This document shows, piece by piece, positions 33,160 through 53,575 of a stretch of 64,000 nt of DNA. Source of the DNA: Globisporangium splendens. Lineage: Eukaryota; Oomycota; Peronosporomycetes; Pythiales; Pythiaceae. Below the pieces are notes generated by a model. The model was given only the letters and a program-made list of their open reading frames with translations, searched no databases and was not told where the DNA came from. Numbering within the stretch: position 1 is the first letter of the stretch; each line of letters opens with the position of its first letter. Location of the stretch: NCBI GenBank assembly GCA_006386115.1, contig VFIW01000007.1, forward strand, positions 530,693 to 594,692. The letters are read 5' to 3'. The position numbers were made by a program, and so were the translations under genes.

Positions 33160-36100
33160 CTAAGTGTGTTTGGTGCTGCTGGATCTGGGGGACAGGCTCG
33201 CTGGCTGCGTGAGCTTCCACTGGAAGATTGAGAGGTCGTTCCCGCCGAGCGAGATCAGGTACTTGTCGTCGCAGCTGAAGCGCACGTTCGTGACATGCGA
33301 CGAATGACCGCGTCCAGCAATGAACTTGGACTGAGACGCATACAGCAGCAACAACAATGAGGATATAAAGCATTAAACTGCAGGCGAAGAAATCGTGCGC
33401 ATGCATTGAAAACAAGCAACGTACCCCTTTCATGATGCACGGGTAGCGGAAGATCTTGACGAGACTCGAGTCGTCGCCCGTGGCGAGGATGGTGCGCGAG
33501 GACGACGCGCACACGGCGTTGATGTCGGTGCCGTCGGCGCACTCGGGACAGATCAGATGTCCTGCACGGGCCACCTCAGCGTGCACGTCCACGTTGCCCA
33601 AGCCACGTCCTTCAATGACGACGCCGAGCGCACTTGCTCGCTAGTCGAGGTGTCGAAAAAGAGGTACTCGTACGCGCCACCGTTCGACTGGATGTACTTG
33701 CTGTCCTCGGAGAAATCGAAATGCGTGATGTAGCTATTGTGTTTGGCAAACGGTTTGTGCTTCTTGGCATCGATTGCGCCGCTGTTCGTCCCACTCGAGA
33801 GTGAGTACAGATAGATCGCATTGTCATGGGACCCAAACGTGACGAGCCGACCACAGGGCGAAAACTTCACCTCGCTGATCCATTCCTTCGCCGGGGAGTC
33901 TTCAAAAAGCACTTTTGCGTCTGCTGTCTGCACATTCAAGAGCACGATCGCACCCTCTTTCGACTTGGCTTGGCCACTTTGCTTCCTAGGGGCTTTGCGC
34001 CGCACACCATTGTCGCCACCGAGACCAATCGCGAAGAGCACAGCATCGGGCGAGTACGCGCAGGCTCGGGATTTCGACGGAAGTCGAGTGAGCTGAGCCA
34101 GCTGTTTGGTCTACATATCCCACACGCGAAGTGTGCCGTCGTCACCTGTCGTCATGAACTCACGGCGGCTCGGATGTACAGCTAAACCCCATAATTCCGA
34201 GCTGTAATGTCCGGAGAACAGAGGTTTACCGCCATTCAGCAGCGTCCCTGAGGACACATCCACCTCGATGATGTCGCTGGATCGGGTCCCGATAAGTAGT
34301 TTTTGACCATTCGCGCTCAGGAACGCGCTGCAAATGGCTCTCTGAAGGCACCCGGTATCCATCGCGACTAAATCGAAGCATTTCAGTGACTGGAAATTTG
34401 CATTCCACATCACCACTTCGCCATCTTTGCCCCCACTGAGCAACACCCCTGTTGCTGACATTTTGCTTTCTGGAGTGCCGAGCTTGTCCGAGCTATGAGC
34501 GCACACGACTGTCGTCTCACCTTCATGCGCTTTGACGGTCCTGGAGACTTCGCCACCTCGCCACACGTACAACTCACCACTCGCTGTTCCTGCCACAAAT
34601 TCGTCTCCAAACACACATCCAGAGGGGAAACTCTGCAACGTTCCCTTCTTCCCGACTTTGCCTTTCTTGGAAGTCATAGATTTGCCCTCAATCGTCCAGA
34701 ACAAGACGTGCTTTGCCCCACCAGTGACGATGGCACTGCTGCTGCTGGTACTGGAAAACGATGTAAAATGGCTGACGCCTTTATCCCCTTTCGACGTTGC
34801 ACGAAGCTTCGCCAATATCCACGAGCCATTGCTGGCGTCTTCCCAGAGCGCGACCGAGTGGTCGTCATCGTCGCCAACACTCACGAGCACCTTCATGTCG
34901 GCGCTGAACGCCAACGACACCACGCCACGGATGTGAAACCCTTTCACTTCGCACCGCAATTCGCCAGTGTGAGCATCCCAGAGACGAATAACGGGCTTCT
35001 TGCCTCGTTCGCCCGTTGCGACAATGTCCCTCTTCAAATCGGAAATCGTAAAGCTCATGATGTCGTCGTTATGGCATAGATGATGGCGCTGCAAGTGAGT
35101 GACCGGGTCGTAGATGCTGCCGTGTGGTACACGATTTCATCACGATCATTGTAGATGAGGTTTTGGTGCGATAACTCGGTTTGATACCCATACACCCAGT
35201 CAAGCTCGAGCTGGAGATCAGGCTCGCGGGAGTTTAGCGTCGGCGCATTGCTTGGCGCAACGATGGCTCCGACTCACGGCTTGACGGCCATAAACTCATC
35301 GCCCGAAGGATCATCCATCAAGTTATTGTCTTCGTCGTCATCTCCATCATCGTCTTCGTCTTGATTGTTCATAGTACTAAACTTTCCATGAAGTGCCTCT
35401 TGCCGGTTTCCAGTAGCTCCCTCCTCGCCGTCGTTCATGACTTTCCACTCCATGATGCATCGATGGTTTCCTCCGACACTTATCACGTGAGTATCATCCA
35501 CACTCCATCGGACATTCGTGACGTGAGACGAATGACCACAATTTTCTGTGGAACTCGCATTTTTGGCGACGCACGGGAAGCGATACAATTTGACGAGTCC
35601 AAAGTCATCCGACGTCGCAAGTAGGTTGCCTTTTGAGTTGCGATCGACGGCATTCACGTCGGTGCCGTCGGAGCACGGGGACCAGGTGCCCTGAACTGGC
35701 CACCCGAGTACACATGTCCACGTCTGCCATTGCGTGTCCTTCGTGCTGCTAGCGGACATGATGTGTCTGCCGTTGGTCGCATCGCTGAAGTGAAGCTCGT
35801 AGGCGCCACAGTTGCTTTGAAGGATTTTGCTGTCGCGTGAAAAGTCGATATGGGTGATGTAGCTCTGATGTCTCGCAAACGTTGCAGTCTTGGTCACCTT
35901 TTTGCAGCTGGCATCGTGGATTTTGTGCAAGTAGATGTGGTGATCATGGGAACCAACGGCCAGGATAGAGCCATTCGGAGAGAATTTCATCTCGCTGATG
36001 GGCTGCTTCGAAGGTTTGTCTTCAAACAGTTTCACTAGGTCACCATAGTGGAGAAGCACAATGCTTCCTGTCTTGACTTGCAAGGCTTTCGATGGCGCTT

Positions 36101-36785
36101 GCTGGGCATTTCGACACCCGTAGCCTACTGCAACCGCATCCAAGCGGTCGTCAACAGCACATACGCGAGCCATACAGTCCAGCTTCTTGGTGCGTAGCTG
36201 AACTTTTGTGCGCAAGCACCAAACTCGAAGCGTTTGATCATCTCCAACCGTGCAGTATTCTGATTTCTTTGGGTGGCAAGCGAGTCCCCAGACCTCCATG
36301 TTGTAGTGGCCCTGTGTGATGATATTGAACGAGATACCAGATCTGCTTGCATCAACTTCAAGCAGGTCGCTTCCGCCTGTACCGACCAGAAACACTCTCG
36401 AAGAGCGGTTGCTTGTACACACTGATCGAATGGACGAATTGTAGAGCCACACTGCAGCTGCTTGCTGTTTCAGATCCACAGTGGCCAGTGGCTTCACGTC
36501 CGAGTCCCAGATCATGATCTTGGAGTCTTTCCTACCCGAGGCGAGTTCGTGTCCATCTTTCCCACTAGAGTGAAGGCATTGGACTCATGGCCAGTCACAA
36601 TCCTCAATAGATCATTCGACGCCTAGAAAACGTAGAGATCACCATTCGAGGCACCCGCCACGACCAATTTACCAAATGAGACAATGCATTCAAACGCCGT
36701 CGGTGCTTCCCCATCTTTATGTTTGGCTTTACCAAAAATCGCCTTCTTGGACGTGAGATTTTTCGCGCGGTACCAGGCTTCATAG
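33160..36785 (-). pseudogene. EML-type HELP/WD40 protein, two tandem modules, decayed and truncated
   Basis: Echinoderm-microtubule-associated-protein-like (EML) sequence runs through this span on the minus strand. Module 1 covers about 36785-35280 and module 2 about 35275-33160. Both contain WGLAVHPS-type and THFDFSEDSKYIQSN-type blades, and module 2 ends in GHSSHVTNVRFSCDDKYLIS. Module 2 begins with a HELP-like PDLQLELDWVYGYQ. Breaks: stop at 36623-36625; frameshift near 36575; a TGA at 35274-35276 where module-linker sequences normally have Trp; frameshift near 35125; TAG at 34111-34113; frameshift near 33566. One GT-AG intron remains near 33425-33330. The 5' end is missing and replaced by virus-like DNA. 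It could be misread as two genes, but the sequence crosses the internal stop without loss of homology. Confidence 0.82.
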
Positions 36786-37650
36786 GGCGAGACTTGCGGG
36801 CCTTCTTGTGGTAAATCATTTTGATCATCCCCATCATTTTGTCCTGCTTGAAGTCCCCGGTGACCATCACCGGCGTGCTGAACTTGATCAGCATCCCGGA
36901 ATAGCGTTCGGGGTTGAAGGTGATGCTATCGACGGGAAGTGGCGTTCGGTTCTGCGACCGATACGCAAGAATGCATCTCTCGAGCGCGGCAAGATCGAGA
37001 AAGGGAACCAATTGGAACCGCTTGCTGTTCTCGACGATGATGCGCGTCTCCACCATACAGTCACTCGCCATCAAAGTGGATGACTTGTAGTTCTGCAGAA
37101 TTGGAGAGAGATAGCTCACGTCGACAGGCTTCTCCGGGTTGAGCATTAGCGCTTTGGGGTAGCTGTTGATATAGGACACCATCACAGTAAGGATGTCCTC
37201 CAAGAGCTCGTCGTTGCGCTTCGACAGTTTGCCGATACCGGGAATCTGCAGGCGACCGTTCGTGAACAGCTTCACCTGATAGGAATGCTCCGTATCTTTG
37301 TCAGACACGATTGTGAACGTTATCTGCGAATTGAAGTGCCTGCCAAGTCCTTGCTTGCGCGAGACCGATTGTCCGCCGCGATCCTTCTTCTTGGACATGC
37401 GGTCTTTATAGCAGGGCCATAGCTTGTACTCCTCCAGAATCTTGTATCCGTAGTTGCATCCGATCTCCACAATGCGATTCGTTAGACCGATGTGGTTGAT
37501 GGCGTCGACCTTATCGAACTTGACGTTCGTGATTATCCCGTCCAAGGTCATGGTGGACAGAACGATGTCGCTCGAGGCGATGTTTTCATTGCGGTCACCC
37601 GGCAGAATTAGGTTGTCAAGAGCGCCAACGTGTTCGGTGATAGAAGCCAT
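36604..37650 (-). CDS. NCLDV-type TBP-like protein, 3' end fused to host EML
   Basis: Open from ATG 37650. Residues to about 285 look viral. They include LDGIITNVKFDKVDAINHIG and the motif KLFTNGRLQIPGIG, which resembles the half-repeat of TATA-binding proteins as found in giant-virus homologues. A TBP-like role in viral transcription initiation is an inference. From about 36785 the frame runs into EML sequence read in a different frame, so the last 50-60 residues are not original. An ATATATACTATTCG stretch lies just upstream of the start. This gene marks the left junction of the inserted block. Confidence 0.5.
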   Translation of the reverse strand: MASITEHVGALDNLILPGDRNENIASSDIVLSTMTLDGIITNVKFDKVDAINHIGLTNRIVEIGCNYGYKILEEYKLWPCYKDRMSKKKDRGGQSVSRKQGLGRHFNSQITFTIVSDKDTEHSYQVKLFTNGRLQIPGIGKLSKRNDELLEDILTVMVSYINSYPKALMLNPEKPVDVSYLSPILQNYKSSTLMASDCMVETRIIVENSKRFQLVPFLDLAALERCILAYRSQNRTPLPVDSITFNPERYSGMLIKFSTPVMVTGDFKQDKMMGMIKMIYHKKARKSRPMKPGTARKISRPRRRFLVKPNIKMGKHRRRLNALSHLVNWSWRVPRMVISTFSRRRMIY

Positions 37651-37764
37651 TGCCACAGAGTGCAAAATCGAATAGTATATATCTGGCGTGCTTACTCAAA
37701 TTTGCGCCACGGCGTGACCGACAGTTTACCAAAATTACCTCGAGCGCGCAGACGAACGGGAGCT

Positions 37765-38346
37765 ATGGAGAACATTGTGCGCAAGTACAACGCCTCCAAT
37801 GCGTCGAATCTCGAGTTGGAGATATCGTACACAGCCGAGCTTGCCCAGTTCCCGGAACTGTGTGAATCGTTCCGATCGCTAAGCGAACGGGTCGAGATCG
37901 TTCAAAACGTGGATGTCTACTACTCCGACAACTCTCGCCGAACCATCGCTTTTGTAGATGGAACGAATCAACACGCCGATGTGTATATCCGGAAGGAGCT
38001 CCTCGCAAAGCCTCTCTGGCTCGGCGACGCGATAAAGATGAAGCTGAACGTGGAGACGCCTGTACCCCCGTCTACTACATCGATCAAGTCTATTCGAGCC
38101 AAGCTTCGTGCTCGCTTCATCTTGGATGCCAAGTTTGGCATTGAACTAGATCTAATTAAGAAAATCGACAAGAACGCCGGCACCTTGAAACAAATCGTCG
38201 GCACCCTGTTCACGGATCGCCCCTTTATTGATACGGATATCTCACTGTTCGACGAGCTGAAGATCGAGACGGAGTTCAAGGCCAAACCGATCGACATACA
38301 AGATCTCAACCGCAGCATGGACCTCATCAGCGCCACGCTGGATTAA
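37765..38346 (+). CDS. capping-enzyme triphosphatase-like protein (viral)
   Basis: 193 residues from ATG 37765. An N-terminal strand with alternating acids (LELEISYTAEL), a middle RAKLRARFILDAKFGIELDL strand pair and a late ELKIETEFKAK strand fit the tunnel-fold RNA triphosphatase of viral mRNA capping enzymes, where paired Glu residues bind metal. Viral capping proteins usually continue into a guanylyltransferase domain, which is absent, so this is either a split domain or a remnant. The assignment is by pattern, not by a close match. It is divergent from the TBP-like gene, sharing 114 nt with an ATAGTAT word. Confidence 0.4.
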   Translation: MENIVRKYNASNASNLELEISYTAELAQFPELCESFRSLSERVEIVQNVDVYYSDNSRRTIAFVDGTNQHADVYIRKELLAKPLWLGDAIKMKLNVETPVPPSTTSIKSIRAKLRARFILDAKFGIELDLIKKIDKNAGTLKQIVGTLFTDRPFIDTDISLFDELKIETEFKAKPIDIQDLNRSMDLISATLD

Positions 38347-38506
38347 ATCATGGGCCTCTTATACATCTTCGTCGCCGACAAGAGCTGGGCAGGAACGACG
38401 TATTCCTCAAAGCAGTTCACTAGATACACAGCGCTCTGACTGGACGACGTAAAGCGAAGCAGTTTGGGATTTTTGTTTAATATAAAAAAGAAAGCCAGAC
38501 AACTAG

Positions 38507-39070
38507 ATGGCGCGGCCGAGCAGCCAAAGCGGAGCGAAATTGATTCTGACAGAAAAGAGTATACGCTCAACTGCAACCGACATGAGCATGGACGCGTTCA
38601 CTCTGGAGTCTTTGAAAGCGAAGCTGCGCGACCATCCCTATGAGATCATCTATCTCAATGATAGTGGCAGCTCCTGGATCATCCACGCGAAGCGCTTTGC
38701 TACTGTCGAGTCGTTCGACGCCTGCTGGGCGCTACACCCCGCTGCCAAGCGCAGCATCTTGATATGGGGCAGGCCCGTGGCGCTTCCGCGCTTCGTCGAG
38801 AACTACGGCGTCGACTACAAGTTTTCTGGATCGTTGTTCCGCGGGCAGGAGATGCCTGAAGTAATGCGCCCCGCCATTGAGCGGCTGCAGTCGCTGGTGG
38901 TTGACAAGGCTGGCGAGACGATGCTCAACAACTGTTCAACGAACTGGTACGAGACGGGTGAGAACTACATCGGGCCGCACTGCGACAATGAGAGGGAGCT
39001 CTATGCAACCTCCCCTGTGTTGACTCTATCGCTGGGCGCCACGCGCAGCGTTCTCGGGCAAACATGGTGA
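38507..39070 (+). pseudogene. AlkB-like 2OG-Fe(II) oxygenase, 3' truncated
   Basis: 187 codons. The C-terminal part has the AlkB core: FVENYGVDYKFSG, NNCSTNWYETGENYIGPHCDNE with the iron-binding H-x-D, then LTLSLGATRS. AlkB enzymes repair alkylated nucleic acids by oxidation. The frame stops just after GATRS, before the second iron-binding His and the 2OG-binding Arg region, so the enzyme cannot be complete. The break lies about 130 nt from the stop codon of the CRN effector gene, so an insertion or rearrangement there is likely. Confidence 0.7.
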
Positions 39071-39197
39071 CAACGAAAGCGCCCGTCAGTATTGCCTTTG
39101 CCGTTGAGTAACTGCCATAACACTGGTTCCCCTCGATCGCTCACATTTTTTTTACTTTCCTACGAACTAATTGATCTTCGTCATACTCGTGCTCCAA

Positions 39198-40379
39198 TCA
39201 GCACAGAATCGCGTAGATTCGGCTGGCGACACGCTTCAGCTCGTCACGAAGTCCCGACTCGGGATTGATCTTATCCTTGAACTCCTCGATACCGGACACC
39301 GTGCGCTTTAGGAAACGCCATTCTTCGTAGTTCGTTACGATCCCGTACATGACATCCTCATCGTTCTGTTCCACAGAGACTTCCATTCCCAGAACACTCT
39401 GCGCCTTGCCCTTGCGGAACTGCTCATCCTTCGCCTCAATCACGCAAATGCTCTTCTTCCCACGCGAGATCAGGAAGTCGACCACACCGTTCGCACGCAC
39501 GTAATCCCCCTCCATCTTCACCTGGATCCCCAGCTTCATACGATCTCGGAACAACTCGTCTTCTTTTCTGAACAGATACACCACGTTCTCGAAGAGAGTG
39601 CTCATCAACTGCACCCGCGTCGCCTCGTTGCCGGATATCTCTTCGTCGTACACGTATGACTTGATGGTGACGGCTTTTGTCATCTCATCCAGTACATCAT
39701 CGTTGATGGCAGGCAGATTGGTTGTCATCAATTTGTAGAACTCGCTAGTGCGCTCAGCTGGAGTCGGTATGAAGCGCTTAGGGAGCGATTCATAGGTGAC
39801 CGACGAAAATGGTTTGCTTGCCGTAACGTCTTGATCATTGAGCAGCGCAATATTTAGTTCGTCCCAGGCACGCTTCTGGTTCAGCGGGATTCGTGCGAGA
39901 CGTTCCAGTCTCTCTTGCTCTTCCCGTGCTAGAAGTTCCTGCCACTCTCGTTCCTTTTGTGTCTGATGTTGAAGCTGTTTTAATGCTAGTTGTTTCCGAA
40001 TAGCATCCACATTCTCGATTATGCGTTCTTTCTCGCCCTGAGGCAACCGCACCAGCACATAAATCACTTCTTCATCTGGAGCGTTAGCGAACACCTCGTC
40101 GATACTGAGCGTTGGTCTGAGCGGGTGTGCCTCAAGAAGATCTTGCACTTTGCTGGCATCTCCGTGCTCAAGCGCGTCAACGTCGTCGGACTCATCGGAA
40201 AGCCAGTTCTCCCCGCGCTTGGCAGCGAAGAGTGTGAGCCGGTTCGCATCTAGGTGGCCAAACGCGTGCGGCTTCTTGTGCTTGATTGCCTCCTTCAAAT
40301 CCCCCACCGTTGAGCTGGCCTCGATGTCAACGGGGAACGCGCTCTCGGCGACGCCGATCTGCATGCAGAAGAGCTTCAT
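39198..40379 (-). CDS. Crinkler (CRN)-type effector with PD-(D/E)XK-like nuclease domain
   Basis: 393 residues, single exon. The N-terminus is CRN-like: KLFCMQIGVAESAFPVDIEA, VGDLKEAIK, RLTLFAAKRGENWL (a variant of the LFLAK motif) and an HVLV-like YVLVRLPQG at the domain end near residue 115. A Glu/Arg-rich helix follows. The C-terminal domain has NGVVDFLI then ICVIEAKDEQ, which fits the D...ExK core of the restriction-endonuclease-like fold found in some CRN C-termini. CRN proteins are delivered into host cells or act between cells. It lies inside the virus-like block on the opposite strand from its neighbours, and appears intact. Confidence 0.85.
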   Translation of the reverse strand: MKLFCMQIGVAESAFPVDIEASSTVGDLKEAIKHKKPHAFGHLDANRLTLFAAKRGENWLSDESDDVDALEHGDASKVQDLLEAHPLRPTLSIDEVFANAPDEEVIYVLVRLPQGEKERIIENVDAIRKQLALKQLQHQTQKEREWQELLAREEQERLERLARIPLNQKRAWDELNIALLNDQDVTASKPFSSVTYESLPKRFIPTPAERTSEFYKLMTTNLPAINDDVLDEMTKAVTIKSYVYDEEISGNEATRVQLMSTLFENVVYLFRKEDELFRDRMKLGIQVKMEGDYVRANGVVDFLISRGKKSICVIEAKDEQFRKGKAQSVLGMEVSVEQNDEDVMYGIVTNYEEWRFLKRTVSGIEEFKDKINPESGLRDELKRVASRIYAILC

Positions 40380-40570
40380 CCTCGCGTCGAAGTGAAAATC
40401 AAACTGATGCTTTCTTTAGGCAGTTACCTAAATAATGGTGGACCACATTACTCAGGGTGAAATGTATCATTTTCCATTCTGTTTCTCAGTTCATAGTCAG
40501 TGTGACAGGTTTTCGAGGCGGAGGACATGCAACTGAATTCGTCTCAATGCTGATTGATAGAAGTATAACC

Positions 40571-41107
40571 ATGGACGCAAATGCGATCAACGCTCTGTGC
40601 GACACGCTGGTTGACCAAGCGATCGTAACCAGATGTAAGCAAACGTATATGCTTGAGTCGCTCGACGTCTACAAGCGAGCTACAATGCTCCTCGGGTACT
40701 TCTCCCAGCTCAAAGACTATCTTTCTGAATACAACAACCTCCACGCCAAAGTGCTAACGCGACGGAGAGACATAGTGGATCGGTATCAACACATACTAGT
40801 GCATGACTATCAGCATATCTACAAACAGCTATTGGTTCCGCCGACCGGGACGGACTGGTACGCGCAAGGCGTAGCCAAGTACAGAAAGGTGCGCCAATAT
40901 AGTATCAACTACTACGGACTCAAACTCCATGCCGAACTCGAGAACGATCCAGTTCGTGCCGCAGACATGAAGAAGCTGATCGAAACGATTGTTATGCTTG
41001 ATATGTACTACGAGATCTACGACGACACGATCAGTAACCTAATGGCCGCCAGTGTCAAGTTCGAGCAAATCATGGGCAAGCAGTTCACGGAGTTTGTTCA
41101 ACTGTAA
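40571..41107 (+). CDS. unrecognised viral-type protein, 178 aa
   Basis: From ATG 40571. An all-helical, charged protein with many Tyr residues (DIVDRYQHILVHDYQHIYKQ). It sits in the virus-like block, without introns, 25 nt from the stop of the convergent RNase H gene. No family recognised. The frame is open upstream to 40457, but the ATG at 40571 follows a better leader. Confidence 0.55.
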   Translation: MDANAINALCDTLVDQAIVTRCKQTYMLESLDVYKRATMLLGYFSQLKDYLSEYNNLHAKVLTRRRDIVDRYQHILVHDYQHIYKQLLVPPTGTDWYAQGVAKYRKVRQYSINYYGLKLHAELENDPVRAADMKKLIETIVMLDMYYEIYDDTISNLMAASVKFEQIMGKQFTEFVQL

Positions 41108-41132
41108 AAAAAGAGAACGAAGCCGTGCGCAG

Positions 41133-41771
41133 TCAGGAAACGATAGTGAAGTCGCTCGATGAGTTCTTGGCAGCGCTTGTGGCAAGCACATCAGCGACGT
41201 CATTGCCGTCGGCGTGCGCTGTTCGTTTCCCCTTCTGATGAGAGCGCACGTGCGTGAACTTGATCGTGATACCGTTTTGCTGGAGGCGCTCGGTGTAGTA
41301 GCGCATCATTAGCAAGATATCTGGGTTCTTTTTTTGGAGCAGAGTGTTTCTGCGGATCCACCCGGGCATCCACTGCTCAACTACGTTGATCCAAAACTCC
41401 GAATCGGTTACGATCTCGACGGTGATCGGATTGATCACCAGCGCCTCTTTCAACTCGTTTTGAGTGTGGTGGGTTATGAAGCCATCGATTGAGTAGGCGT
41501 TTGCCAAGCCCTTTATCACATCGGTAGTGGATTGGTTGACGAGCACTTCGTTGTATAGAGACAGCGTGGACACGATGGCGAGTCCCTCCATGCGGATGTT
41601 GGTCACGTAGAAGGTTTCTCCTTTGTATTCCATGCGCTCCCCTTTTCGATTGATTTTCGTTGGGGGATCCAAAATAGACGACTTCATGATGAAGATGCCG
41701 AAGCAGCCTCGAGCAGAAGCGGTTCCATTCTTTTTGCAAGCGCCGTCGGTGTAGATGAGCACCGTAGCCAT
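41133..41771 (-). CDS. RNase H1-like protein (viral type)
   Basis: 212 residues, intact. RNase H cleaves RNA in RNA-DNA hybrids. The four acidic active-site positions are visible: Asp in LIYTDGAC, Glu in RMEGLAIV, Asp in IVTDSEFW and Asp in GNDVADVLA, with a THVRSHQKG segment holding the active-site-loop His. The length and insertions are closer to large-DNA-virus RNase H proteins than to the RNase H domains of elements A, B and C in this window, with which it shares only the core motifs. A GGGTATATATTATCC word lies just upstream of the start. Confidence 0.8.
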   Translation of the reverse strand: MATVLIYTDGACKKNGTASARGCFGIFIMKSSILDPPTKINRKGERMEYKGETFYVTNIRMEGLAIVSTLSLYNEVLVNQSTTDVIKGLANAYSIDGFITHHTQNELKEALVINPITVEIVTDSEFWINVVEQWMPGWIRRNTLLQKKNPDILLMMRYYTERLQQNGITIKFTHVRSHQKGKRTAHADGNDVADVLATSAAKNSSSDFTIVS

Positions 41772-41841
41772 GATGGGTATATATTATCCTAGGCGAATCA
41801 ATACCAGATTTGAATTACTCGTGGCTTCTGACATAGTCCGT

Positions 41842-42000
41842 CTATCTTCGCATGAACTGATCGATCTCATCTAATAGATCGAATTGATCGCAGTTGTCTG
41901 GCTCTGGAAGTGAAGGGGGATCGGACAAAAGCGGGAGGTCTGGTTTCTTGTCGGACTTCTTCTTCTTGACCGATGTGCTAATCATCACAAGCAAGATCTT
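41842..42000 (-). pseudogene. C-terminal remnant of a small viral-type protein
   Basis: A Lys- then Asp/Pro-rich tail (KKKKSDKKPDLPLL ... DEIDQFMRR) ends at 41842. Its open frame starts inside the 76-bp inverted repeat at 42001-42076, so the original N-terminus has been cut off by that insertion. No function can be assigned. Confidence 0.5.
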
Positions 42001-42432
42001 TATAAGGTGAGGTATATTTAGGTTCATCGTCGTGACCTACAATATCCATTCTCCTACCTAATCTTCATTACGAATTGAGATGGTGGACTCAGCCGCCAAC
42101 CTAGCCATGGATACCAGAACCTCAACGCAGGTTCACTTCCCAACCCATCGAGCTGCTTTCAACAATCTCACCCAGGATCTTGACAACGACGTCATGCATT
42201 GGCTTATGCGAAGTTCGGAAGACCCACGGTCATTGGACAACACAAGGCAGCCTCACATAGGACCAAGAGAACATGCCATCCTGGTCAGAGATTATTTAGC
42301 ATTCAGAAGTGATCTAGTGCAATCCGCGCTTTAGACACATTTACACTCCTAGATGAAATTCGTAATGAAGATTAGGTAGGAGAATGGATATTGTAGGTCA
42401 CGACGATGAACCTAAATATACCTCACCTTATA
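42001..42432. mobile_element. 432-bp fold-back element made from a non-LTR 3' end
   Basis: Bases 42001-42076 and 42357-42432 are perfect inverted copies of each other (76 bp). The interior (42077-42356, plus strand) encodes the last 85 codons of the RNase H region of the element B/C family (shared words include NLAMDTRTSTQVHFPTHRAA) and its 3' UTR. The same 3' UTR ends element C at 58797. The right copy has a TAAA-repeat tail. The left copy is a reversed duplicate of the 3' UTR end. No target duplication is obvious. Confidence 0.85.
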
Positions 42433-42543
42433 AATAAATAAATGTTTGGATGTATGTCAATGATATTCTATATACGGGTCGATATACTAGACTACAAATA
42501 TAAAATAATTCACAGCCATGTTCCGCCGATCAGGTCGCCGTGC

Positions 42544-42861
42544 TCACTGTACTCGACTCCCATATCGCGCAAACTTCTCGTTTTTAGTTAGACACAGATA
42601 CTCCTGTTGTTCCGCGCTCCCCATGGATCGAAACAGCGCCAACTCCTTGTCGTAGTTCGGGAAGAAAATTTCCTTACGAGCGACCTGAAAATAGTCCGGT
42701 GGATACTGCGCTGCGTAGCTACCAGAAACCGCGGTACGCCACAGCAGGCAAACGAATAGAGCAACGAATGCAGCGACCAGTAGAATCGTGACGATTCGAC
42801 GGTCGCATTGACGACGGCACTCTGGGGACATTTTCGACGGTCTACAGCTCGTTGAGGTCAT
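42544..42861 (-). CDS. small single-pass membrane protein (viral type)
   Basis: 105 residues from ATG 42861. A basic N-terminus with Cys/Arg residues precedes a strong membrane helix (IVTILLVAAFVALFVCLL) at about residues 25-45, followed by a lumenal or external domain with PPDYFQVARKE and NEKFARYG. No family recognised. It is divergent from the RPB5-like gene, and the 61-nt gap contains TATACTATAGTA. Confidence 0.5.
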   Translation of the reverse strand: MTSTSCRPSKMSPECRRQCDRRIVTILLVAAFVALFVCLLWRTAVSGSYAAQYPPDYFQVARKEIFFPNYDKELALFRSMGSAEQQEYLCLTKNEKFARYGSRVQ

Positions 42862-42922
42862 GCACAACTGAAAATTCCTCGCTGTGTATAACCAGCCCCT
42901 ACTATAGTATAGCGGCCAAAAG

Positions 42923-43621
42923 ATGAACAACACGAATCAGCAACTCTACGCCATCTACAAGAACATCCAGAGCTTCTACAACTACCGAAAGCTCGTGTCG
43001 ATCGACGAAGAGCTATCTCAAGATCAGTGTATCAAGAGAATCCAGAAAGACAAGTGCGTCCTTCTGTCTGCCGTGGACCGACACGCGGTGGCCAACGACG
43101 CGCACGAAGTCGACTCCGGCAAGCTCAACTCAGCTAAGAAGAAGCTTAGCGATGCCTCCCAAGACCTGACTCCGACGTGCATCCTTTTGATCTATCCCGG
43201 CACTGAATGCGAGAACAAGCGCGGTAACATGACCAAGCTTATTAATCGCATTCGCTACCCGCGCGCCCGTATTCTAGTGATCACGCCGACAAGGATCTCG
43301 CCGGGCGTAATGAAGGGACTTCAAGCTCTAAGCAGCCTACACGACCACCGCCATCACGAGATCAAGGCGTTCACCTACATGCTACTGAACTCAGTTCTTC
43401 CCGAGTTTGAACTGGCTCCCAAGTACGAGATCCTTACGGTGGCCAAGCTCCAGCACCTCAGAGACTGGTTCGTGGATCCAGATACGCTCCCGAAGATCTT
43501 TGAACACGACCCGCAAATGGTGTGCATCGGAGCCATGGTCGGCGACGTGGTGAAGTTCACCTTTATGTCCGAGGTCACGATCGAAGGAATTGGTTACTGT
43601 AGGGTCATCTCGAATCCGTGA
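42923..43621 (+). CDS. RPB5-like RNA polymerase subunit (NCLDV type)
   Basis: 232 residues, intact. RPB5 is a shared eukaryotic polymerase subunit also encoded by many giant viruses. The C-terminal assembly domain is clear: NSVLPEFELAPKYEILT, a helix with DPDTLPKIFEHDPQ and a final strand set GAMVGDVVKFTFMSEVTIEG then YCRVI. The N-terminal half carries the jaw-type domain (CILLIYPGTECENK, ARILVITPTRISPG). The sequence is far from cellular RPB5 and the context is viral. A CTATAGTATAG word lies about 15 nt upstream. Confidence 0.78.
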   Translation: MNNTNQQLYAIYKNIQSFYNYRKLVSIDEELSQDQCIKRIQKDKCVLLSAVDRHAVANDAHEVDSGKLNSAKKKLSDASQDLTPTCILLIYPGTECENKRGNMTKLINRIRYPRARILVITPTRISPGVMKGLQALSSLHDHRHHEIKAFTYMLLNSVLPEFELAPKYEILTVAKLQHLRDWFVDPDTLPKIFEHDPQMVCIGAMVGDVVKFTFMSEVTIEGIGYCRVISNP

Positions 43622-43715
43622 AGATATCCTCGCGTACTTACTAGCCTCGGGCTCGTGTATTTTTTTACGATTTGCCAGATTTAGCTCCGCCTAATATAGT
43701 ATTATCGAGAGTACG

Positions 43716-44157
43716 ATGAGCGATCCGTCAATCACTTCCTCGTACATCGGGGAGGCACCCCATAAGCCTACCTGTACCGAAAAGGTTTGCAACAGCCAGC
43801 TGTTCGGTTTTGCGGTGGGCAAGTTCGTGTGCAAGACGCTCCCCAAAATCCTGTACGCGCTATTGATTGTGTTCGTCGTGTTCGTTGTGTTCTCGCTCTT
43901 TGTAACGCTGGTAGACGCGGAGGTTCGAGAAGCGGACGCATCGGTATTGACCGCCACGGCGATGTATGCGAACAAGCTCCGCCACTACAATTGTAAGCGG
44001 CGCGGAGGATGCTCGCGCAAATGCCCATATATTACGAACGACGATCCGCGAAAGGTTATGGGCGTCCAGATTGATGGGATGGACTCCCTATACAACGCCA
44101 CGGTCGACACTCTTCAAAAAGAGAAGGACAGCATGGACAACCTAATTATCTTTATCA
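43716..44157 (+). pseudogene. viral-type membrane protein interrupted by element A
   Basis: Starts at ATG 43716. A Cys-containing N-terminus precedes a membrane helix (ILYALLIVFVVFVVFSLFVTLV), then a Cys-rich stretch (RRGGCSRKCPYI) and a helical part reaching a second hydrophobic stretch where element A has inserted. Beyond 44157 the frame is retrotransposon sequence. The viral frame can be followed again after 53454 for a short distance. It is not functional as it stands. Confidence 0.6.
44141..44157. repeat. 17-bp target-site duplication, left copy
   Basis: CCTAATTATCTTTATCA occurs here and again at 53438-53454, flanking element A exactly. Confidence 0.85.
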
Positions 44158-44340
44158 CTTTCGATCTAGCCTTCTACAGGACAGACAGCCTTGGTACCAG
44201 CTGTTTGTATCGGGAGTACAAGTACCACGACGACAATCGACAGTCCACTGCCAAGATCATTGGAAAGGGGCGAATATACTGAACTGAGTATACGAGCCTT
44301 TATAAAGAGCGATAAGCGAATGCTCTCTCCTGAGGTCTCC

Positions 44341-47300
44341 ATGACGAATATGGAGCAACCAAAGGAGGGGGCCGCGCGGAAGGAAGCTCCAGAAGGTGTT
44401 TCCACAAAGACAGCCACCGCGCTGCGGAGTGTGCGTGCGCAAGTCGACACAGATGTGGCTATACGAGCGTCGCAGCACGAAGAAGGGGGAGCCCTAGATT
44501 CTGTGCACACGAACGATACGGCCCAATTAAAAGCAGGAGGACAAGAAAAGATAAGGACCATTGAAGAGGGCACGACTCCATCGCGTGCGGAAGGTTCTCG
44601 AAAAGAAGCGTCGACGGAGACTACACCAGTGGAGAGATACGAAGCCCTCGCCGCAAAGTTGCGTGTGTCACCAAACGCGGTCAACAAAATGGAGATTGAA
44701 TACGAAGTGCGGTTAATGTTCACGGCTCTTTACAACGGGATGCGAATTTTGGAGAAACCAAAAAAGGCGAACGACAATTACCCAACACTTAATGGAGAAG
44801 AAGCGGACGCACTGGTAGACCTTTTCCGTCTACTGGCAATTGAAAAGGGAAAATCCTTTCCGGAGTGGAAGCGGACGATCCAAGATTTATGCAAGGATAT
44901 GCACCGATCATCTTGGACAGTGGTAGCGCTTATCCAAAAGAGAATTGACCAGAACAAGCTGGCAGAAGAAACCAAGGCTTCGCCATGGGGCTCGCAAACC
45001 AGCACCAACAGTCAAACAAAAGCCAAAGAGCAAGGTACCCAACCCTTCACCTTCAAATCGGACAAATACTCGGAGGAGGAACAAAGCAACATGATCCGAC
45101 ACTGCAAGCAAAAGTTCGAGTACTCAGTAACCCTGCGCCAGCCGACAACGATGGAATGGGAAATCATGCTAGCGATCGTGGAAGGCGAACTCCTGATTCG
45201 ACACCTGCCTCAATTCCTACGGCGAGTGTGTGATGGGACACCCTTTTCCGCTTCCAGAACACCATCGCAGCTCAGGTGGAAGGAGAGCTGGTCGGCAAAT
45301 TATCGGATGCAACGCAAGTTTACAAAGATCACCAATCGACCGGACGAATCGTGGAAGCCATCTTGCAAGCAGCGAGATACCGAAATGACGGCAAAATGGA
45401 AGAGACAATGGCGATGCTGAAAGATCTCAAAGCTGCGGAATATAATGACAGTACTCATTCTCTCCACTTCTATTTCTATGACAGGAGCACAGCGGCGAAA
45501 TGGAACAAAATGACGATCCCCTTCCGACGCCAATTGGTGCAGCTCATATCCGCACACCAGACGGAGACAACCGGAGAGCGACAGGAGGCAAACAACGTTT
45601 GGAACAGGCAATTGGGAGCGGACGGGCTACAAAACGCAGAATCGAGATCCAGGTACAAAATTCAGCTTTTAAACACTGCTCGCTCAATGAATATGGCCTT
45701 GTTTTTAGAATACTTGAAGCAGACGACAGGCAAGCGATTCTACGCCTACCCACTTGATCAGTACGGCCCAAGATCCAACCAATCGCAGTGGTGGGAGGTG
45801 CTCTTTGAAGACGAATTGTGTCCAAAAGCGCTTATCGATGTCAGACGAATTATTTGGCGAGGGCGAACGCTCATCCTTCACCACGCATCCAAGTATCGAA
45901 TTGCTCCTTGTTTAATCTGCGGGGCAGCGGGACATTTCGCGCGAGCATGTAAGGCAACGGAAGAGGAACTAAAAACTAACAACTGTATTTACGCAGATGA
46001 CGAAATCGTGAGTAAACTTCCGAGAAAGCCAGCCACTTTCACAAGTGCAGCGGAAATAAAAGAGTCGGTCTCAGACAGTATCGACAAACAGAAACAGCCC
46101 CTTCAACCAGCAGCAGAGAGTCCTCAAGCCAGTGAGGAAAACAAGCCGAGCGAGAACGCGAATCCCGTGACGCCTGACGTGACCAACACGTCCAGCCCAC
46201 AACCGAACTCCAATCCAAGAAATCTAACAAAAAATGCATCGTTTACAGTGGGAACAGGAACTCCAGTACAACAAATCGGCAATCTTAAAGAACAGGCGAA
46301 GGCGAAACCAAACGGCGGAGTAGCGAATACAAAAGGACCCGTGTCAAAGGCAAGCCAGAAAAATGGACCAAGACAAATTTCCAAGGAGGACATCCGATGG
46401 GCAAAAGAACTGATGCGCTTTCGACGAGATATGGACGAGCTGATGAAGGTGCACGTGGAAAGACAAGCCGAGCTCAACCCGAATCGTAACGACATCATGG
46501 ACTGGGATGGGGAGTACACGCTTCAAGACGTGATGGAAGCCAACGGACTTGCAGAAGCAACAACACCACCAACCGGAAATTGCCAATTTTATGCAGTGGC
46601 GGAAGCGATGCTCCAAATCACGCATGACAACATGGCCAATGAGAAGCTGCTCGAGGCAACGGCGAGCAGAATCAAGCAAAGTATGAACGCGGCCGCACGT
46701 CTCAACTTCGATCTTGAACTCCCTGAAGGAACGCATCTGGGAATACTCGAAGCATTGGGGAGAGGGGATCGAAAAATGAGCCCAAAAGAAAGGAAAGCAG
46801 ATGTTCTCGACTATTTCAATGATATCGCAAGCAGCTCCTCCAGCCGATCGTCCACGCTACCAGGGTCCATGTGGGGTGGACCGGAGTCCTTGCGGATGGC
46901 TGCCAAGGCTTTGCAGAGAAAAGTCTTCGTGCTCATCGAGACAACGTACGGAAACCGAAAAGGGTTTGCAATTTACAAGCCACAATCCAGAGTCCAGGCA
47001 GGAGGCCAGTTTCTGTCAGCCAAAGAGCATGCGTGCACGGGGAAGCAATGGGAAGACGAGCTTCGTCAGGACAGAATCGAAGCAGAGGCTACGAGCAGTC
47101 CACTTCCAATCGTGATGAAATTCGCAAAAGAACACTACAACAGTCTGCATTTCAGAACCCTAAACGAACCATCGTCACCGGCGAATATGACGAGCTCCTC
47201 GTTAGCGAAGCATCTCCAAGGATCCGAAAGGAGCAAGACGGAGTTCAAGACTGACCGATCCGGCCAATTCGACTTCGAACCAGTTGCGGAGGATTCAATG

Positions 47301-48317
47301 GAGGAAAGCGACAATTCCAGTTTGGAAGATTTAGAGGTGACTCCATCGCTGGAGGAGCGAGAAAAGTTCGAGCCAAACCAGCTCAGCGGACATCACGGTT
47401 GGTCGTTCGCATCTCAGGAGAATCAGCTTGTGGTGTATCACTCGCCCACAACCGAGTTACCTCCACAACCCAGGAAGCGAGATAGAGACGAAACCCTGAT
47501 GCTCACAGCCGGAGATGGTGACGACGCGATGAACCTGAACAGCCCCAATGTCCCCCTCAAGAAAACCAGAACGCTCTCGAGACGTTTGGCGATCGAAGGA
47601 GACTCCATGCAGAAACGCAGAGACCTCGAGCGCACGCTGCAGGAGCATTGGGAAGGGTTCCAGGAGCAATGGAAACAAGAAACCAAATGCCCCTTTCCTC
47701 TGCTCTCGTCCAATCATGATGTATGGACGCAGGCAGCTCTCAATGAATGGGAGCGAATTCTAGCGATGTTGAAGACGTCGCCAGGGCCGCATCATGTGCT
47801 GAACCATCTCAGAGGGCCAACGCTAGTGGACTTGACACAAGTACTGCGCGAACAGGTGATTGAGGAAGGACTCAAACGTCTTTTATACCGCACCGATGAA
47901 GCAGAAACCAAGGTATGGATTACAGGTTGGTTTGACAGGATTGCAACGGCAACCACGAAGCAACAACGGGCGGCACTACTCAACTCCAAGGAAGACTGGT
48001 CGATGCTAGGAAGAATGAAGTACGGTGGTCTCGAAGTTCTGCGACTTTGTCACCCGACCCAGCAAGAGAAGCTCAGCCGCTACATCATCTGCACAGTGGT
48101 GTATGAGGAGGAGCTGCAGACGTTCAGGTCTAGCGACGCCGAAGACTCAGACAACCTGTACGAGGCGATTGAAGACTTCTGTGCGATGTTGAAGCAAACC
48201 AGAGAACTCAAAGCAGCCTTCAAGAGCGGAGAGGAGCTCAGCGAGTGGTCAGCTCTATCGGTGATTATGGCTCAAGTCACCATGGAAGTGGACTCGGTCG
48301 AGCCCTCAAGGTACTAA
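44341..48317 (+). pseudogene. element A ORF1: zinc knuckle + OTU-like protease, one frameshift
   Basis: ORF1 runs from about 44341 to 45240 in one frame and continues in the -1 frame to 48317. A single change near 45235 separates them, and no canonical slippery site is present. The first part is a charged, helical Gag-like region. A CX2CX4HX4C knuckle (CLICGAAGHFARAC) lies near 45910. An OTU-type cysteine protease domain follows, with the catalytic Cys in TGNCQFYAVAEAML near 46580 and His in KEHYNSLHF near 47140. The C-terminal third is helical. The OTU domain could remove ubiquitin from element proteins; this is an inference from family function. Confidence 0.75.
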
Positions 48318-48366
48318 AGGCACGACACCAACAGGTAACCAAGATGGCAGTAGCCCAGGTACAGAA

Positions 48367-51300
48367 ATGTACGCCGCGCTACATGCCCTCAAGAATGCAT
48401 TTTACAAAAACCAAAAAAAGGAAAAAAGATCATGTCCTAACACGCTACGGGTATTAACTCAGAACGTGTGCGGATTCAAAAAGAAAGAACGAACAAAATG
48501 GTTAGAGGATCTCAAGGGGGCACTAACCGCAGAAAAGTATGATATCATTTATTTGCAGGAAACGAGGATCACCACAGCCAAAGAAGAACGCAGACTCCGA
48601 CAATACTGGAACCGAATATGGGGGATTACAAACCTGGACGAAGCAACGTCCTTTTGGTCCATCCATCCAGACGCGACCGGCGGAGTTGCAATACTCACAA
48701 ATCCGAAGACAATTAGCGAAACAAAACTGATCGAGGAATCCAAGTGGACAAATCGCACAGTCGCTATCAAGTCCAAGGGAGTGGTGTGGATTAACGTGTA
48801 CGCACCCAACAAGAAATCAGAGCGAGAACACTTCTTCCGACGCCTAAACGAGGAGTTCGGGACTCATCGTGCAGCAGCAGTGCTCGGAGGTGACTTCAAT
48901 TGTGTGCTCGACAAGCAACGAGACCGGTACCAAAGAGGAGTTCTGCTACCGATGCAATGCGAAAGTGCAGAACTGAGAAGATTAGTGACGGAGTGGAACA
49001 TACACGACGCACGGGAGCTAGTGGAGGATCCGGAGTGGCCAGTGCAGCGAGAACCGACGGAGCATTTCACATACTGGAGAAAAAACTCAGCCAGTCGACT
49101 CGACCGATTCTATATAGCAGGAAATCTGGGTAGTGCCGTGCAATGGGAGGCCATAGAGCTACCCAAGCGCTACTCGGACCACCAAGCAGTGGTGCTGCAT
49201 ATGAAATGGACGAGCCAACCGCAGAGACCAAGGAAGGTGAACAAGTGCAGGTACCCGATACGTACTTCGCGTCCTGACTTGGTGCGGACTGGAGTGCAAC
49301 AGGCAATCAGTCGCGAGCTGGAGCTGATGCAGAGTGAAGGACCAATCGAGTGGAACCATCTGGAGAAGGGTATCATCCAAGCAATACTGAGAGTGAGTCG
49401 AGCAGAGAAGCGGCAAGTGCGAAGATATCAGCAAAAGTTGGAGGATCAGCAGCACAAACCGGCAAACCGCTCAAGGCGTCAGCTGATCGAAGAACAAGCA
49501 AACGCGGCAAGAGAGGCAGCAGAGTTTAAATTCGGTAAGTATATGCAAGCAACGCAGGGGGATGTTCGTCACTTCTTTCGGAGGATCGCCAACTGGCAGC
49601 GGGATCAAACAATTTCGCGATTGGAACCGACCCCCGGAAGGTACCACCCACCAAACGTGAGTCTAGCGGACATCATGGGGGCTGAGTGGCACCAAATCAC
49701 CGGCCAGAGCCATGCTACGGTCCCTCCGCACAAGGCTGAACTGCGATTCGATGCACTGGTGTACATTCCGGAAACTCGGAAAGTCACGGAAGCGCAAAAC
49801 CAAGACTTGATGGCACCCATTACTGAAAAAGAAGTACGAGAGGCAATCGCGGCTTTACATCGGCATAAGGCAGGTGGCGTGGACAGTCTGAACAATGACT
49901 TCTACAAGGATTGCGAGGACGCGATGGTCGACGTTTTGGTGCGGGAATTCAACAACATCCAACGCGGGGCACCCATGCCAAGATCATTCGGCCAAGGAAT
50001 CGTTATTCCGTTGCGCAAGAAAGGAGATTCGCCAAATCCCCTCGATTACAGACCAATCACTCTGCTTACGACCACCTACAAGTTGTTTGCAAAAGTCCTA
50101 GCAACAAGGCTGCAAGACATCCTTCTGTGGATCGTCGGAGAAGAACAACAAGGATTCGTACGCGACCGACTGATGGAGAACGCGATCCTCATCATGCAAG
50201 CCGCATTGGATAAAGCGTACCACAGCAGCACTGAAGGGTTCGATGACGCTCCGGGAATTGTGATGCTTGACTTCATGAAGGCTTACGACACATTGGACAG
50301 AGACTTTTTGTACCTTGTGCTGAGCAAGTTCGGCTTTGGGCGACAATTTGTGGATTTAGTACGTCGAATGCACTCGGACACTACGGCGCAGTACCTGGTG
50401 AACGGTGAACTGTCGAGAGAATGGGAGGTCAAGTCGGGTATTCGTCAAGGTTGCCCCCTGGCCCCTCTGCTGTTTATCGTTGCTGCGGAGATTCTCGCAC
50501 TGGCAGTACAACAAGACCCCTATCTGGAAGGGATTCGTGTGACCAGATCAGGAGCAGAACCCCATCTTATTTCGACCTTCGTTGACGACTCTGCTGTCTT
50601 TTTGAAACAAGGGAGACAGCTGCCTCGGCTGATGCAGCTGCTGACCGAGTTTGGCCAGCAATCAGGGCTGCACGTGCAACCAACGAAAAGCAGCTATATC
50701 AGTCTCAACACAGCAGTAGTCCAAGAACAAAGATGCGGCATTCCAATCCTGAAGCATGGAGAGACGGTGAGGTACCTTGGCATCCAAATAGGAACCGGGA
50801 ACATCACGCAGGCTAATTGGGAGGACCGCCTGCAAAAGCTCCGAACAAGATTGATTATCGCGACCAAAGTCTCCAACAGTGTGGTGGGGAGAGTGCTTAT
50901 ACTGAATTCGGTCTTGCTGCCGTCGATTCTATTCACTGCCGGCTACATCAAGCCCCCAGCGAAGGTCGTGGATCAGCTAGTGAACCTACAAAAGCAATTT
51001 TTGTGGAAATCGACACTCGGCACAGACGGCATGAGGCACAAGGTGAGTCCTTCCCTGCTCTACCTGCCGGTCAAGGAAGGAGGTATTGGTCTCTATTCAA
51101 TACCTCTGGCAATAAAGCGACAAGCGATGCGGCGGACAACTCGGTGGCTACAGCGAGCGCGAGACAGGTATACAGAAGCTTGGCATGAACAGGTTCATCA
51201 GGACAAAAGTCAGAACTGGGGATGCTGCGCGATTTCACCCAAGGAGCGAAGCCAGCACGCACAGACAAGGCTGTACCAGACGAACAATATCCACAGACTC

Positions 51301-53394
51301 GGGTGGGAGTATCTCGGTGAAGACCTGGTGGCTGCAGAGGGACGCAATCCCGCGTGGAAAGACGATCTAAAGCGGCAAATGGAATCCTTGCTACCGACCG
51401 TGGACCTCGAGTGGAGATCAGACGGACGGGTAGGCGTATATTTTGGGAGAAAACCTGAGCAGACGATTCATCAGCTATCGGAAGAGACTCGAGCGTTCTG
51501 GCCATCCTTTCAGTGGAACGACAACCCCTGGATAATCGACAGTCAAGGCGAGCAGTACACGGTCAAAACGGTTTCTTTCCTGAAGGAATGCAATTTGGCC
51601 AGCTTCAACGTGAGAAGGGAAGAAGAGCGAGTGTTCTCTGTGCGACTACCAACCATGACGGCGACTCTCACGTCCAAACGAAGGGCCGTCCTGCGAAAAC
51701 TCGTAACCAGCATCATTCTATGCTCACCGGAGATGGAAATCGATGCAGGCAACCAGCTAATCAGTCAGCAGGAGCCGTGGAGCAGGAAACACACAAAACG
51801 AGAGTACAAGTGGATCAGCAACGGCATGGGAACCATCACCGCGGTGCCAGTATCGGAGAGGAGCCACACGGACTACATTCAGATGCAACGGCAAGCAAAT
51901 GGAGTTCTCTGGACAGTGACCGACTGGACCGGGGATGCTACTTGCCAACAAGACGTTGCAATGATCGAAGAAGAAATAAAGACTGTAGGGTAGACATTCA
52001 AACCTCACCCGCTCACGACGCAGTGTCCGTGGCTGGTGCATGAACGTACTCCCCCAAACAGCATCCAGAAGACAATTGACCGAGCAAGAACACGGAGGCT
52101 GCACAGCAAGCTGTATCAAGGTCTCGGAGTACTCGTAGACAAGCTCAACGAAGTCGCGAAAACGGATCAGTGGTACAGTCATGTGCAGTATCGGCTACCA
52201 GCAGATCTATGGAAGCAACGAGGATGTCTTACACCGTATCAGATGTGGACGACATACCGGATTTCTGCGATGCAGCTCAACCTGTTCCATCCGGGAAGGA
52301 TCGAGTCTTCGGCATGTCCAAGCAATGCCGGATGTGGGGAAACAAAAGAAACTATCTCACACATAGTCTGGAGTTGCAAGCGAGCACAAGCCGCGTGGAT
52401 GGCCTTCCTCGGGCGATGGATTGGTCGAACATTGACGGAGCAAGCACTCAATCTCTTCCTGCCGCATATTGCTAGCCGCACAGCCCCGCCAGGTCAACGA
52501 TCTTTGCTCCGGGAATTGGAAAAGAGCTTCGGGTTCATTAATCCGGAACACTCGACAGCACTACAGAAACTCTGGTTTATCGTCACATCAAGCATCCCAG
52601 TATTGCTGTGGAGAACGAGAGTGGAAATAGTGCATGAACGGCAACACGTTGCTATCGAAGAAAGCACCAGGCGTGTGTGGACGGCGTGTGTGATGCAAGT
52701 GCGAGCTGTGGCTCATCGGATGAGAACGCTCAAAGGAGAAAAGATCAATGCAACTTGCCTGAGCCAACTGCTCAGCGTACTGGAGAGACAAGACATGTCA
52801 CGCCAACTTGAAGCGTGGGCGACAGCGCGTTTGTATTTCGATGGAGGTGCACGCGGCAACCCAGGTCCAGGAGGCAGTGGTTGGGCACTCATCTTCCTGA
52901 ATGAACGCAGCAATCGATGGGAACTCAAAGCATGCGGCTATGCGTACATGGGACCAGAAGTCACGAACAATTGGTGCGAATACAGCGCGCTGGAAGATGG
53001 TCTGGCATACAGTGCACACTACCTACAGCACTATGAAGTCAAGTTGGAAGTCTTCGGAGATAGCCAAATGATTATCGCAGCCCAGAACGGGTTCGCCTCA
53101 ATACGCCAGACCGAGTTGCAGCCACTAGCAGTTCGGGTAAACCAAATCATCGCCAACTTTGCGTGGATCTCCTGGAATCACACAAAACGAGAACAAACCA
53201 AAATGGCCGATCTTCTCGCCAACGTGGCAATGAACTCCAAGAGTGCGAAGATACTCACCGACGAATCGCGGGGGAACGATCAAATTCTTCTGTCCCAAGT
53301 CGCAGCTCTACTCGACAATGATATCGGTGCCACACCGTCAAAACTTCGAAACACCTCACTGTCAGCAGTGTTAATGAGACTCAGGAATTCTTAA
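48367..53394 (+). pseudogene. element A ORF2: endonuclease-RT-RNase H, one in-frame stop
   Basis: The endonuclease comes first (LTQNVCGF, YLQETRI, NVYAPNKK, LGGDFNCVLD, SRLDRFY, YSDHQAV). Reverse transcriptase follows, with [49 protein letters not shown] and the catalytic FVDD near 50580. After a TAG at 51991-51993 the same frame continues to 53394 with a CCHC-like stretch near 52315 and an RNase H domain (LYFDGGARGNPGPGGSGWAL; Glu in WCEYSALEDG; Asp in VFGDSQMI; MADLLANVAM). Apart from that stop the frame is intact, so inactivation is recent or the stop is read through. Confidence 0.85.
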
Positions 53395-53437
53395 ACTATA
53401 TGTAGATCATAAGTTAAATAGAATTACCTTCTCTCTC

Positions 53438-53454
53438 CCTAATTATCTTTATCA
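53438..53454. repeat. 17-bp target-site duplication, right copy
   Basis: Right copy of the duplication flanking element A (left copy 44141-44157). Confidence 0.85.
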
Positions 53455-53575
53455 TTGTGAAATTTGCGGTCTACCCCACAGATTACGCAATACCAAGCCC
53501 CAAGACTCAAGCAAGAACCAATCAAGAGCCAGCGTCCTATCCTTCAGTAACCAGCTGTTTTCGGAGTTTCGACCA
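53455..53575. other. junction between element A and element B
   Basis: About 120 nt that must include the rest of the interrupted viral frame and/or the 5' leader of element B. The viral frame stays open through it, so the boundary cannot be placed by eye. Confidence 0.4.

What the first reader, a model, noticed from the sequence alone, without database searches (positions are those of the whole stretch)
36786..44157. Giant-virus-like gene cluster inserted into a host cytoskeleton gene
A compact, intronless, two-strand cluster with RPB5-like, RNase H, TBP-like, capping-like, AlkB-like and membrane-protein genes abruptly replaces the 5' part of an EML gene. This fits an endogenised NCLDV fragment. 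NCLDV-like insertions are known in some oomycete genomes; the specific virus group cannot be read here.
Basis: partly seen in the sequence, partly recalled or inferred. Interest (0 to 1): 0.9.

Follow-up and report, generated by a model that had tools for sequence, protein, structure and literature searches.

The report
Asfar-like viral island splitting host gene
A piece of DNA from a distant relative of African swine fever virus appears to have been inserted into a microtubule-protein gene of a probable water mould and later filled with jumping genes, and both halves of the broken host gene still flank it.

Summary
The cluster is real and is the left end of a larger island: about 70.4 kb (C173 ~567,462-637,889; window 36,770 to beyond the window), of which about 14.2 kb is not LINE retroelement. 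The host EML gene has not lost its 5' part; that part lies beyond the island's far end. The two EML flanks align, separately, to adjacent residues (6-151 and 152-192) of the neighbouring tandem unit, so one EML unit was split without detectable loss.

The best virus marker lies outside the window: a DNA ligase broken by one frameshift, 53% (residues 1-393) and 74% (396-434) identical to that of an IMG/VR contig whose RPB2 and capping enzyme match proteins that I recall as African swine fever virus's. The window's RPB5 is viral/archaeal-like rather than eukaryotic; its RNase H is not LINE-derived. AlkB and Crinkler genes are real family members of uncertain source. 'TBP-like' is weak; 'capping-like' is unsupported. 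Capsid and VLTF3 searches were empty, but had no positive control.

Asfarvirus-like insertions in Phytophthora and Globisporangium are published, so this is a new member of a known kind. Boldest open reading: a circular or permuted viral molecule integrated, cut inside its TBP-like gene.

The parts
33197..36769 (-). 3' side of the split multi-unit EML gene (rest of the first propeller of the split unit, its second propeller, then a further unit); in-frame stop and frameshift near the junction
36770..64000 (.). part of the 70.4-kb island that lies in the window (island goes on to C173 ~637,889)
36770..37650 (-). left-end ORF, cut at its 3' end by the junction (the open frame runs on by chance to 36,604); weakly TBP-like
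   Evidence: no Pfam or PDB match
37765..38346 (+).
38507..39070 (+). AlkB-type 2OG-Fe(II) oxygenase, truncated
39198..40379 (-). Crinkler (CRN)-type gene, intact ORF of 393 aa
40547..41107 (+). 186-aa ORF, no family
41133..41771 (-). RNase H, 212 aa
42078..42448 (+). LINE B 3'-end fragment
42544..42861 (-). 105-aa ORF with a hydrophobic stretch (by eye)
42923..43621 (+). RPB5-like RNA polymerase subunit, 232 aa
43716..44156 (+). ORF with a hydrophobic stretch (by eye), cut by the LINE at 44,157
44157..53440 (+). LINE A copy (endonuclease and reverse transcriptase ORF)
53454..64000 (.). LINE B copies and fragments in both orientations, running past the window end

Best explanation
This is an endogenous, decayed fragment of an asfarvirus-like giant virus. 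Viral DNA was inserted, probably by end joining at a chromosome break, into one unit of a tandem-repeat EML (microtubule-associated WD40) gene and cut it without detectable loss. LINE elements of two families then inserted repeatedly and swelled the locus to about 70 kb. The EML part 3' of the insertion and some island genes (ligase, AlkB) decayed. It most likely does nothing now beyond having broken the EML gene. Shown: the split unit, the LINE copies, the asfar-like ligase, the damaged genes. Inferred: end joining, the order of events, that all non-LINE stretches came with one virus, and the lack of function.
For: Split: the right flank piece aligns to residues 6-151 and the left piece to 152-192 of the neighbouring unit; HELP motif and positions 2-142 of 267 of the first EML propeller on the right, second propeller (E=1.5e-99) on the left. 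Virus: island ligase best PDB match 6imj (2.7e-23; next distinct protein 2.9e-9); 53% and 74% identity in two frames to the ligase of IMG/VR contig 3300046336_000110; that contig's RPB2 matches 8q3b_B at 720 bits against 399 for the best cellular one, its capping enzyme 7d8u at 1.5e-36, plus poly(A) polymerase PF19244. I recall 6imj, 8q3b and 7d8u as ASFV proteins; the outputs do not say so. A second island ORF (C173:637131-637559) has a weak match in that contig (E=5e-4). Window: RPB5 matches archaeal (1.3e-6) and 8q3b_E (8.2e-5) better than any eukaryotic RPB5 (best 0.029). LINEs: 32 of 33 repeat pairs of 150 bp or more are 95-99% identical, one is 93%.
Against: No capsid gene and no VLTF3 was found, though these three searches rang in no control genome. 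Four RPB2 matches in the genome were taken as cellular, not shown to be. The strongest viral gene is 65 kb from the window's cluster, beyond LINEs; that both came with one virus is inferred. No tree was made. tblastn of the island ORFs against that IMG/VR contig matched only the ligase and, weakly, one other. CRN genes are not known as viral genes.
Confidence: 0.82

Rival explanations
1. Refinement of the best explanation: the integrated viral DNA was circular, or a circularly permuted unit, and opened inside its TBP-like gene, so that the island's left end carries the 5' part and its right end the 3' part of one gene.
For: Both end ORFs are on the minus strand and cut in a complementary way (left loses its 3' end, right its 5' end, if it began before the junction). 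Left piece: 0 of 500 shuffles reach its score on a profile of 77 archaeal TBPs; third of 971 ORFs, after two exons of the host TBP, E=0.065. Right piece: TBP is its only Pfam family, E=0.13, second half of a lobe; 2 of 500 shuffles reach its profile score.
Against: Right piece is ninth of 971 ORFs with E=5.4; 249 of 2000 shuffles match its similarity to the left piece; hhalign probabilities are 7.8% and 4.6%; left piece has no Pfam TBP match; AlphaFold model pLDDT 31.9. The right ORF could be a small gene with its own ATG. Faustovirus genomes were re-judged linear (PMC7290515).
Confidence: 0.35
2. The genes are cellular: a host gene cluster or host gene fragments gathered by retroelements, not a virus.
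For: CRN and AlkB domains occur in cellular genomes (recalled); the CRN's N-terminal region has DNA relatives elsewhere in this genome (68-77%). No canonical host RPB5 was found, so the RPB5 here is the only one seen. G+C is like the flanks.
Against: Ligase and its viral relatives; RPB5 unlike eukaryotic RPB5; RNase H has no significant match to the LINE ones (best E=0.10).
Confidence: 0.1
3. Assembly artefact or contamination joined viral or foreign DNA to the EML gene.
For: Nearly identical and inverted LINE copies could mislead an assembler inside the island.
Against: The two EML halves fit each other across the island; no N in 133 kb; LINE copies lie inside the island; both end stretches run directly into EML.
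Confidence: 0.05

Closest known systems
Asfarvirus-like endogenous insertion of Phytophthora parasitica, with homologues in other Phytophthora, Globisporangium and Pythium (Hannat et al. 2021, PMC8204020; abstract, Results, and part 1 of 2 of the Discussion read)
   Same: Asfarvirus-like genes scattered among transposable elements, partial genes, CRN genes in the same region (the paper reports four on its 550-kb contig).
   Different: Genes listed there are RNA polymerase 1 and 2, capsid, helicase, T5orf172 and hypotheticals; here ligase, RPB5 and RNase H. Here mainly LINEs, there mainly Gypsy, Polinton and PiggyBac. The target gene and both junctions are visible here. Whether both descend from one insertion could not be tested.
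IMG/VR contig IMGVR_UViG_3300046336_000110 (35,148 bp, uncultivated)
   Same: Ligase 53-74% identical over 432 of 434 residues, in two frames on the island.
   Different: Of the island ORFs only the ligase, and weakly one other, matched it; it carries RPB2, capping enzyme and poly(A) polymerase, which the island lacks as far as seen.
African swine fever virus (Asfarviridae)
   Same: Proteins that I recall as ASFV's are the best PDB match of the ligase and of RPB2 and the capping enzyme of the related contig.
   Different: Distant; no ASFV genome or gene order was compared.

Membership tests
Endogenous viral element | Sits in a host chromosome with host sequence on both sides | tested here: met
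   EML on both sides, halves of one unit; assembly only, no reads
Endogenous viral element | Genes whose closest relatives are viral | tested here: met
   Ligase, by similarity and not by tree; RPB5 less clear
Endogenous viral element | Decay or invasion by transposable elements (usual, not required) | tested here: met
   Ligase frameshift, cut ORFs, LINE copies
Asfarviridae and kin | DNA ligase of the asfarvirus type (a core gene in PMC8005611, passages) | tested here: met
   similarity only
Asfarviridae and kin | Capsid protein and VLTF3 | tested here: inconclusive
   PF16903 best E=0.11, PF04451 and PF04947 none; no control genome rang for any of the three
Asfarviridae and kin | Viral RPB2 | tested here: inconclusive
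   Four long ORFs in the genome, none in the island; identity not resolved
Asfarviridae and kin | Family B DNA polymerase, A32 ATPase, D5 helicase | not tested
Oomycete insertion of Hannat et al. 2021 | Shared orthologous viral genes and descent from one insertion | not testable with these tools
   No oomycete sequence collection; protein database off
mRNA capping enzyme (193-aa ORF) | Recognisable capping-enzyme domain | tested here: not met
   no match to the capping enzyme of the related contig
TATA-binding protein (end ORFs) | TBP lobes | tested here: inconclusive
RPB5 | RPB5 C-terminal domain | tested here: met
   PF01191 E=4.9e-8, 33.1 bits, cut-off 23.5

The most novel reading that the evidence does not exclude
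A circular or circularly permuted asfar-like viral DNA molecule integrated through one break inside its own TBP-like gene into an EML unit, leaving both the host gene and the viral gene as complementary halves: a fossil of how giant-virus DNA enters an oomycete chromosome, possibly with CRN-type genes already aboard the virus.
Probability: 0.33. Interest if true: 0.7.

Novelty: new member of a known kind. Interest (0 to 1): 0.5.

Why it matters
Asfarvirus-like insertions in oomycetes are known, but the one studied in detail lies in a gap-rich short-read contig (PMC8204020). Here both junctions are in one contig, the target gene is identified and the pre-insertion site can be read from the flanks. 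Mode of entry, age, and presence or absence in related strains become directly testable. It also adds ligase, RPB5 and RNase H to the genes left behind and ties the insertion to an uncultivated viral contig.

Tried and rejected
Single-protein scans of IMG/VR with TBP-like, RPB5 and RNase H: no relatives. An RPB5 pattern scan gave 15 stretches, of which I judged 2 to encode RPB5; the A1 scan returned one of these two contigs again. Structure predictions of the TBP-like piece and the 193-aa ORF had pLDDT 31.9 and 30.6, so no fold search was run. PHROGs gave only RNase H (7.8e-21). NCBIfam gave nothing over a cut-off.

RNase H from a LINE: rejected (best E=0.10). RPB5 as the host's own: rejected on similarity, but no canonical host RPB5 was found: PF01191 gave only the island's copy, PF03871 one sub-threshold match (17.1 bits, cut-off 27), yeast RPB5 none. 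I leave that unexplained.

Against the clean split: one search compared 13 ORFs (several are the same DNA in overlapping loci). The adjacent unit (seen twice) gives exact adjacency, and a C125 unit (seen in L008 and L009) is compatible. Other rows place the short left piece elsewhere with low scores (for example L007 at 496-532).

TBP profile: 77 of 80 loci used, 3 dropped by length. Of 500 shuffles per piece, 354 (left) and 396 (right) got any score.

Full report
What is there. The window lies in a 53.3-Mb, 195-contig assembly (C173:530,693-594,692). At window 36,770-44,156 nine intronless ORFs lie on both strands with short gaps. Pfam supports RPB5, RNase H, an AlkB-type oxygenase (just under the cut-off) and a Crinkler N-terminal domain. 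The other five have no confident family. A LINE end interrupts the cluster at 42,078-42,448, and a LINE copy begins at 44,157.

The island is larger than reported. I fetched 60 kb to the right of the window (from 594,000) and 10 kb to its left. ORFs not of LINE type recur between LINE copies at C173 596,219-597,157, 617,255-617,863 and 632,837-637,559 (ORFs of 130 aa or more from ATG). From junction to junction the island is about 70,428 bp; 14,170 bp in five stretches lie outside the LINE repeats that one search shows. The division rests on repeats within this stretch, not on a repeat library.

The host gene is split, not replaced. EML-type matches lie on both sides. The right-flank ORF has the HELP motif and positions 2-142 of 267 of the first EML propeller profile; the ORF left of the junction has the second propeller (E=1.5e-99). 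Aligned separately to the neighbouring tandem unit, the right piece covers residues 6-151 and the left piece 152-192, so no coding loss is detectable. The junctions show at most a few bases of G+C microhomology and no long target-site duplication (sequence); end joining is my inference. The left half has an in-frame stop and a frameshift near the junction.

Which virus. The ligase at C173:632,837 onward is the best marker. Its closest PDB sequence is 6imj (E=2.7e-23; the next distinct protein 2.9e-9). A 35-kb IMG/VR contig has a ligase 53% identical over residues 1-393 and 74% over 396-434, the latter in a second frame: nearly complete on the island but broken near its 3' end. That contig's RPB2 matches 8q3b_B (720 bits; best cellular 399), its capping enzyme 7d8u (E=1.5e-36), and it has a viral-type poly(A) polymerase (PF19244, 1.7e-30). 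I recall these three PDB entries as African swine fever virus proteins; the outputs do not name the organism. DNA ligase is listed among the core genes of Asfarviridae (PMC8005611, passages). The donor was probably asfarvirus-like.

Inside the finding's own coordinates the evidence is weaker. RPB5 matches archaeal RPB5 (1.3e-6) and 8q3b_E (8.2e-5) better than any eukaryotic RPB5 (best 0.029). It matches an IMG/VR contig at 36% over residues 164-225 (E=3e-7); part of that contig's protein was in the query alignment, so this is a confirmation rather than an independent find. RNase H has no significant match to those of the neighbouring LINEs.

What is missing. Whole-genome searches found no capsid protein (PF16903 best E=0.11, below cut-off; PF04451 none) and no VLTF3; for all three no control genome rang, so absence is not shown. 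Four long RPB2 ORFs were found, which I take as cellular. Polymerase B, A32 and D5 were not tested. The TBP-like ORF has no second copy.

The ends. The left-end ORF is weakly TBP-like: 0 of 500 shuffles score as high on a profile of 77 archaeal TBPs; it is third of 971 ORFs, after two host TBP exons, with E=0.065. The right-end piece (94 aa, minus strand) has TBP as its only Pfam family, at E=0.13 and over the second half of a lobe; 2 of 500 shuffles reach its profile score, but it is only ninth of 971 ORFs (E=5.4), and its similarity to the left piece is reached by 249 of 2000 shuffles. If both belong to one gene, the integrated molecule was circular or permuted. I put that at about a third. 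Circularity in this group is disputed: Kaumoebavirus is described as circular (PMC5127008, passages); Faustovirus was re-judged linear (PMC7290515, passages).

How it works. I think the island is inert. The likely effect is loss of the EML part downstream of the insertion. In P. [quoted passage not shown] No expression data were available here.

Known or new. Asfarvirus-like insertions in Phytophthora, Globisporangium and Pythium are published (PMC8204020; PMC5294986, passages). The listings of my paper searches show no report of an insertion in an EML gene; they cover the held open-access library, and I read only the papers named. Hence a new member of a known kind.

Noticed in passing
window 39198-40379 (-) and C173:634127-636100 (-) (L031/L032): Two Crinkler-type genes sit as compactly as the other island genes (127 and 167 bp from their neighbours in the window); they match each other at 26% and, over the N-terminal part, 39%. 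The first has a Pfam match; the second was not scanned. CRN genes also lie in the viral region of P. parasitica (PMC8204020).
   Followed up: partly
whole genome G000: No canonical RPB5 was found by PF01191, PF03871 or yeast RPB5; only the island's divergent RPB5 rang.
   Followed up: partly
C173 574,849-594,621 and 597,249-616,424 (window 44157 onward): LINE A and LINE B copies lie in one order on the plus strand and mirrored on the minus strand about a 1.1-kb viral-like stretch, a large inverted pair.
   Followed up: no
window 45396-48317: A 973-aa ORF of LINE A with no Pfam match; by eye it may hold an OTU-type protease motif (untested).
   Followed up: no
L058:12735-17570: RPB2 of the IMG/VR contig carries a LAGLIDADG-type insertion, probably an intein.
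   Followed up: no
G000:C83:27657-28820 and C110:122937-124100: Two RPB2 matches with the same score (462.9 bits), perhaps a duplicated stretch of the assembly.
   Followed up: no
C173:637131-637559 (-): ORF with short repeats, weak match (E=5e-4) to the repeat protein at the start of the IMG/VR contig (L055:209-1267).
   Followed up: partly
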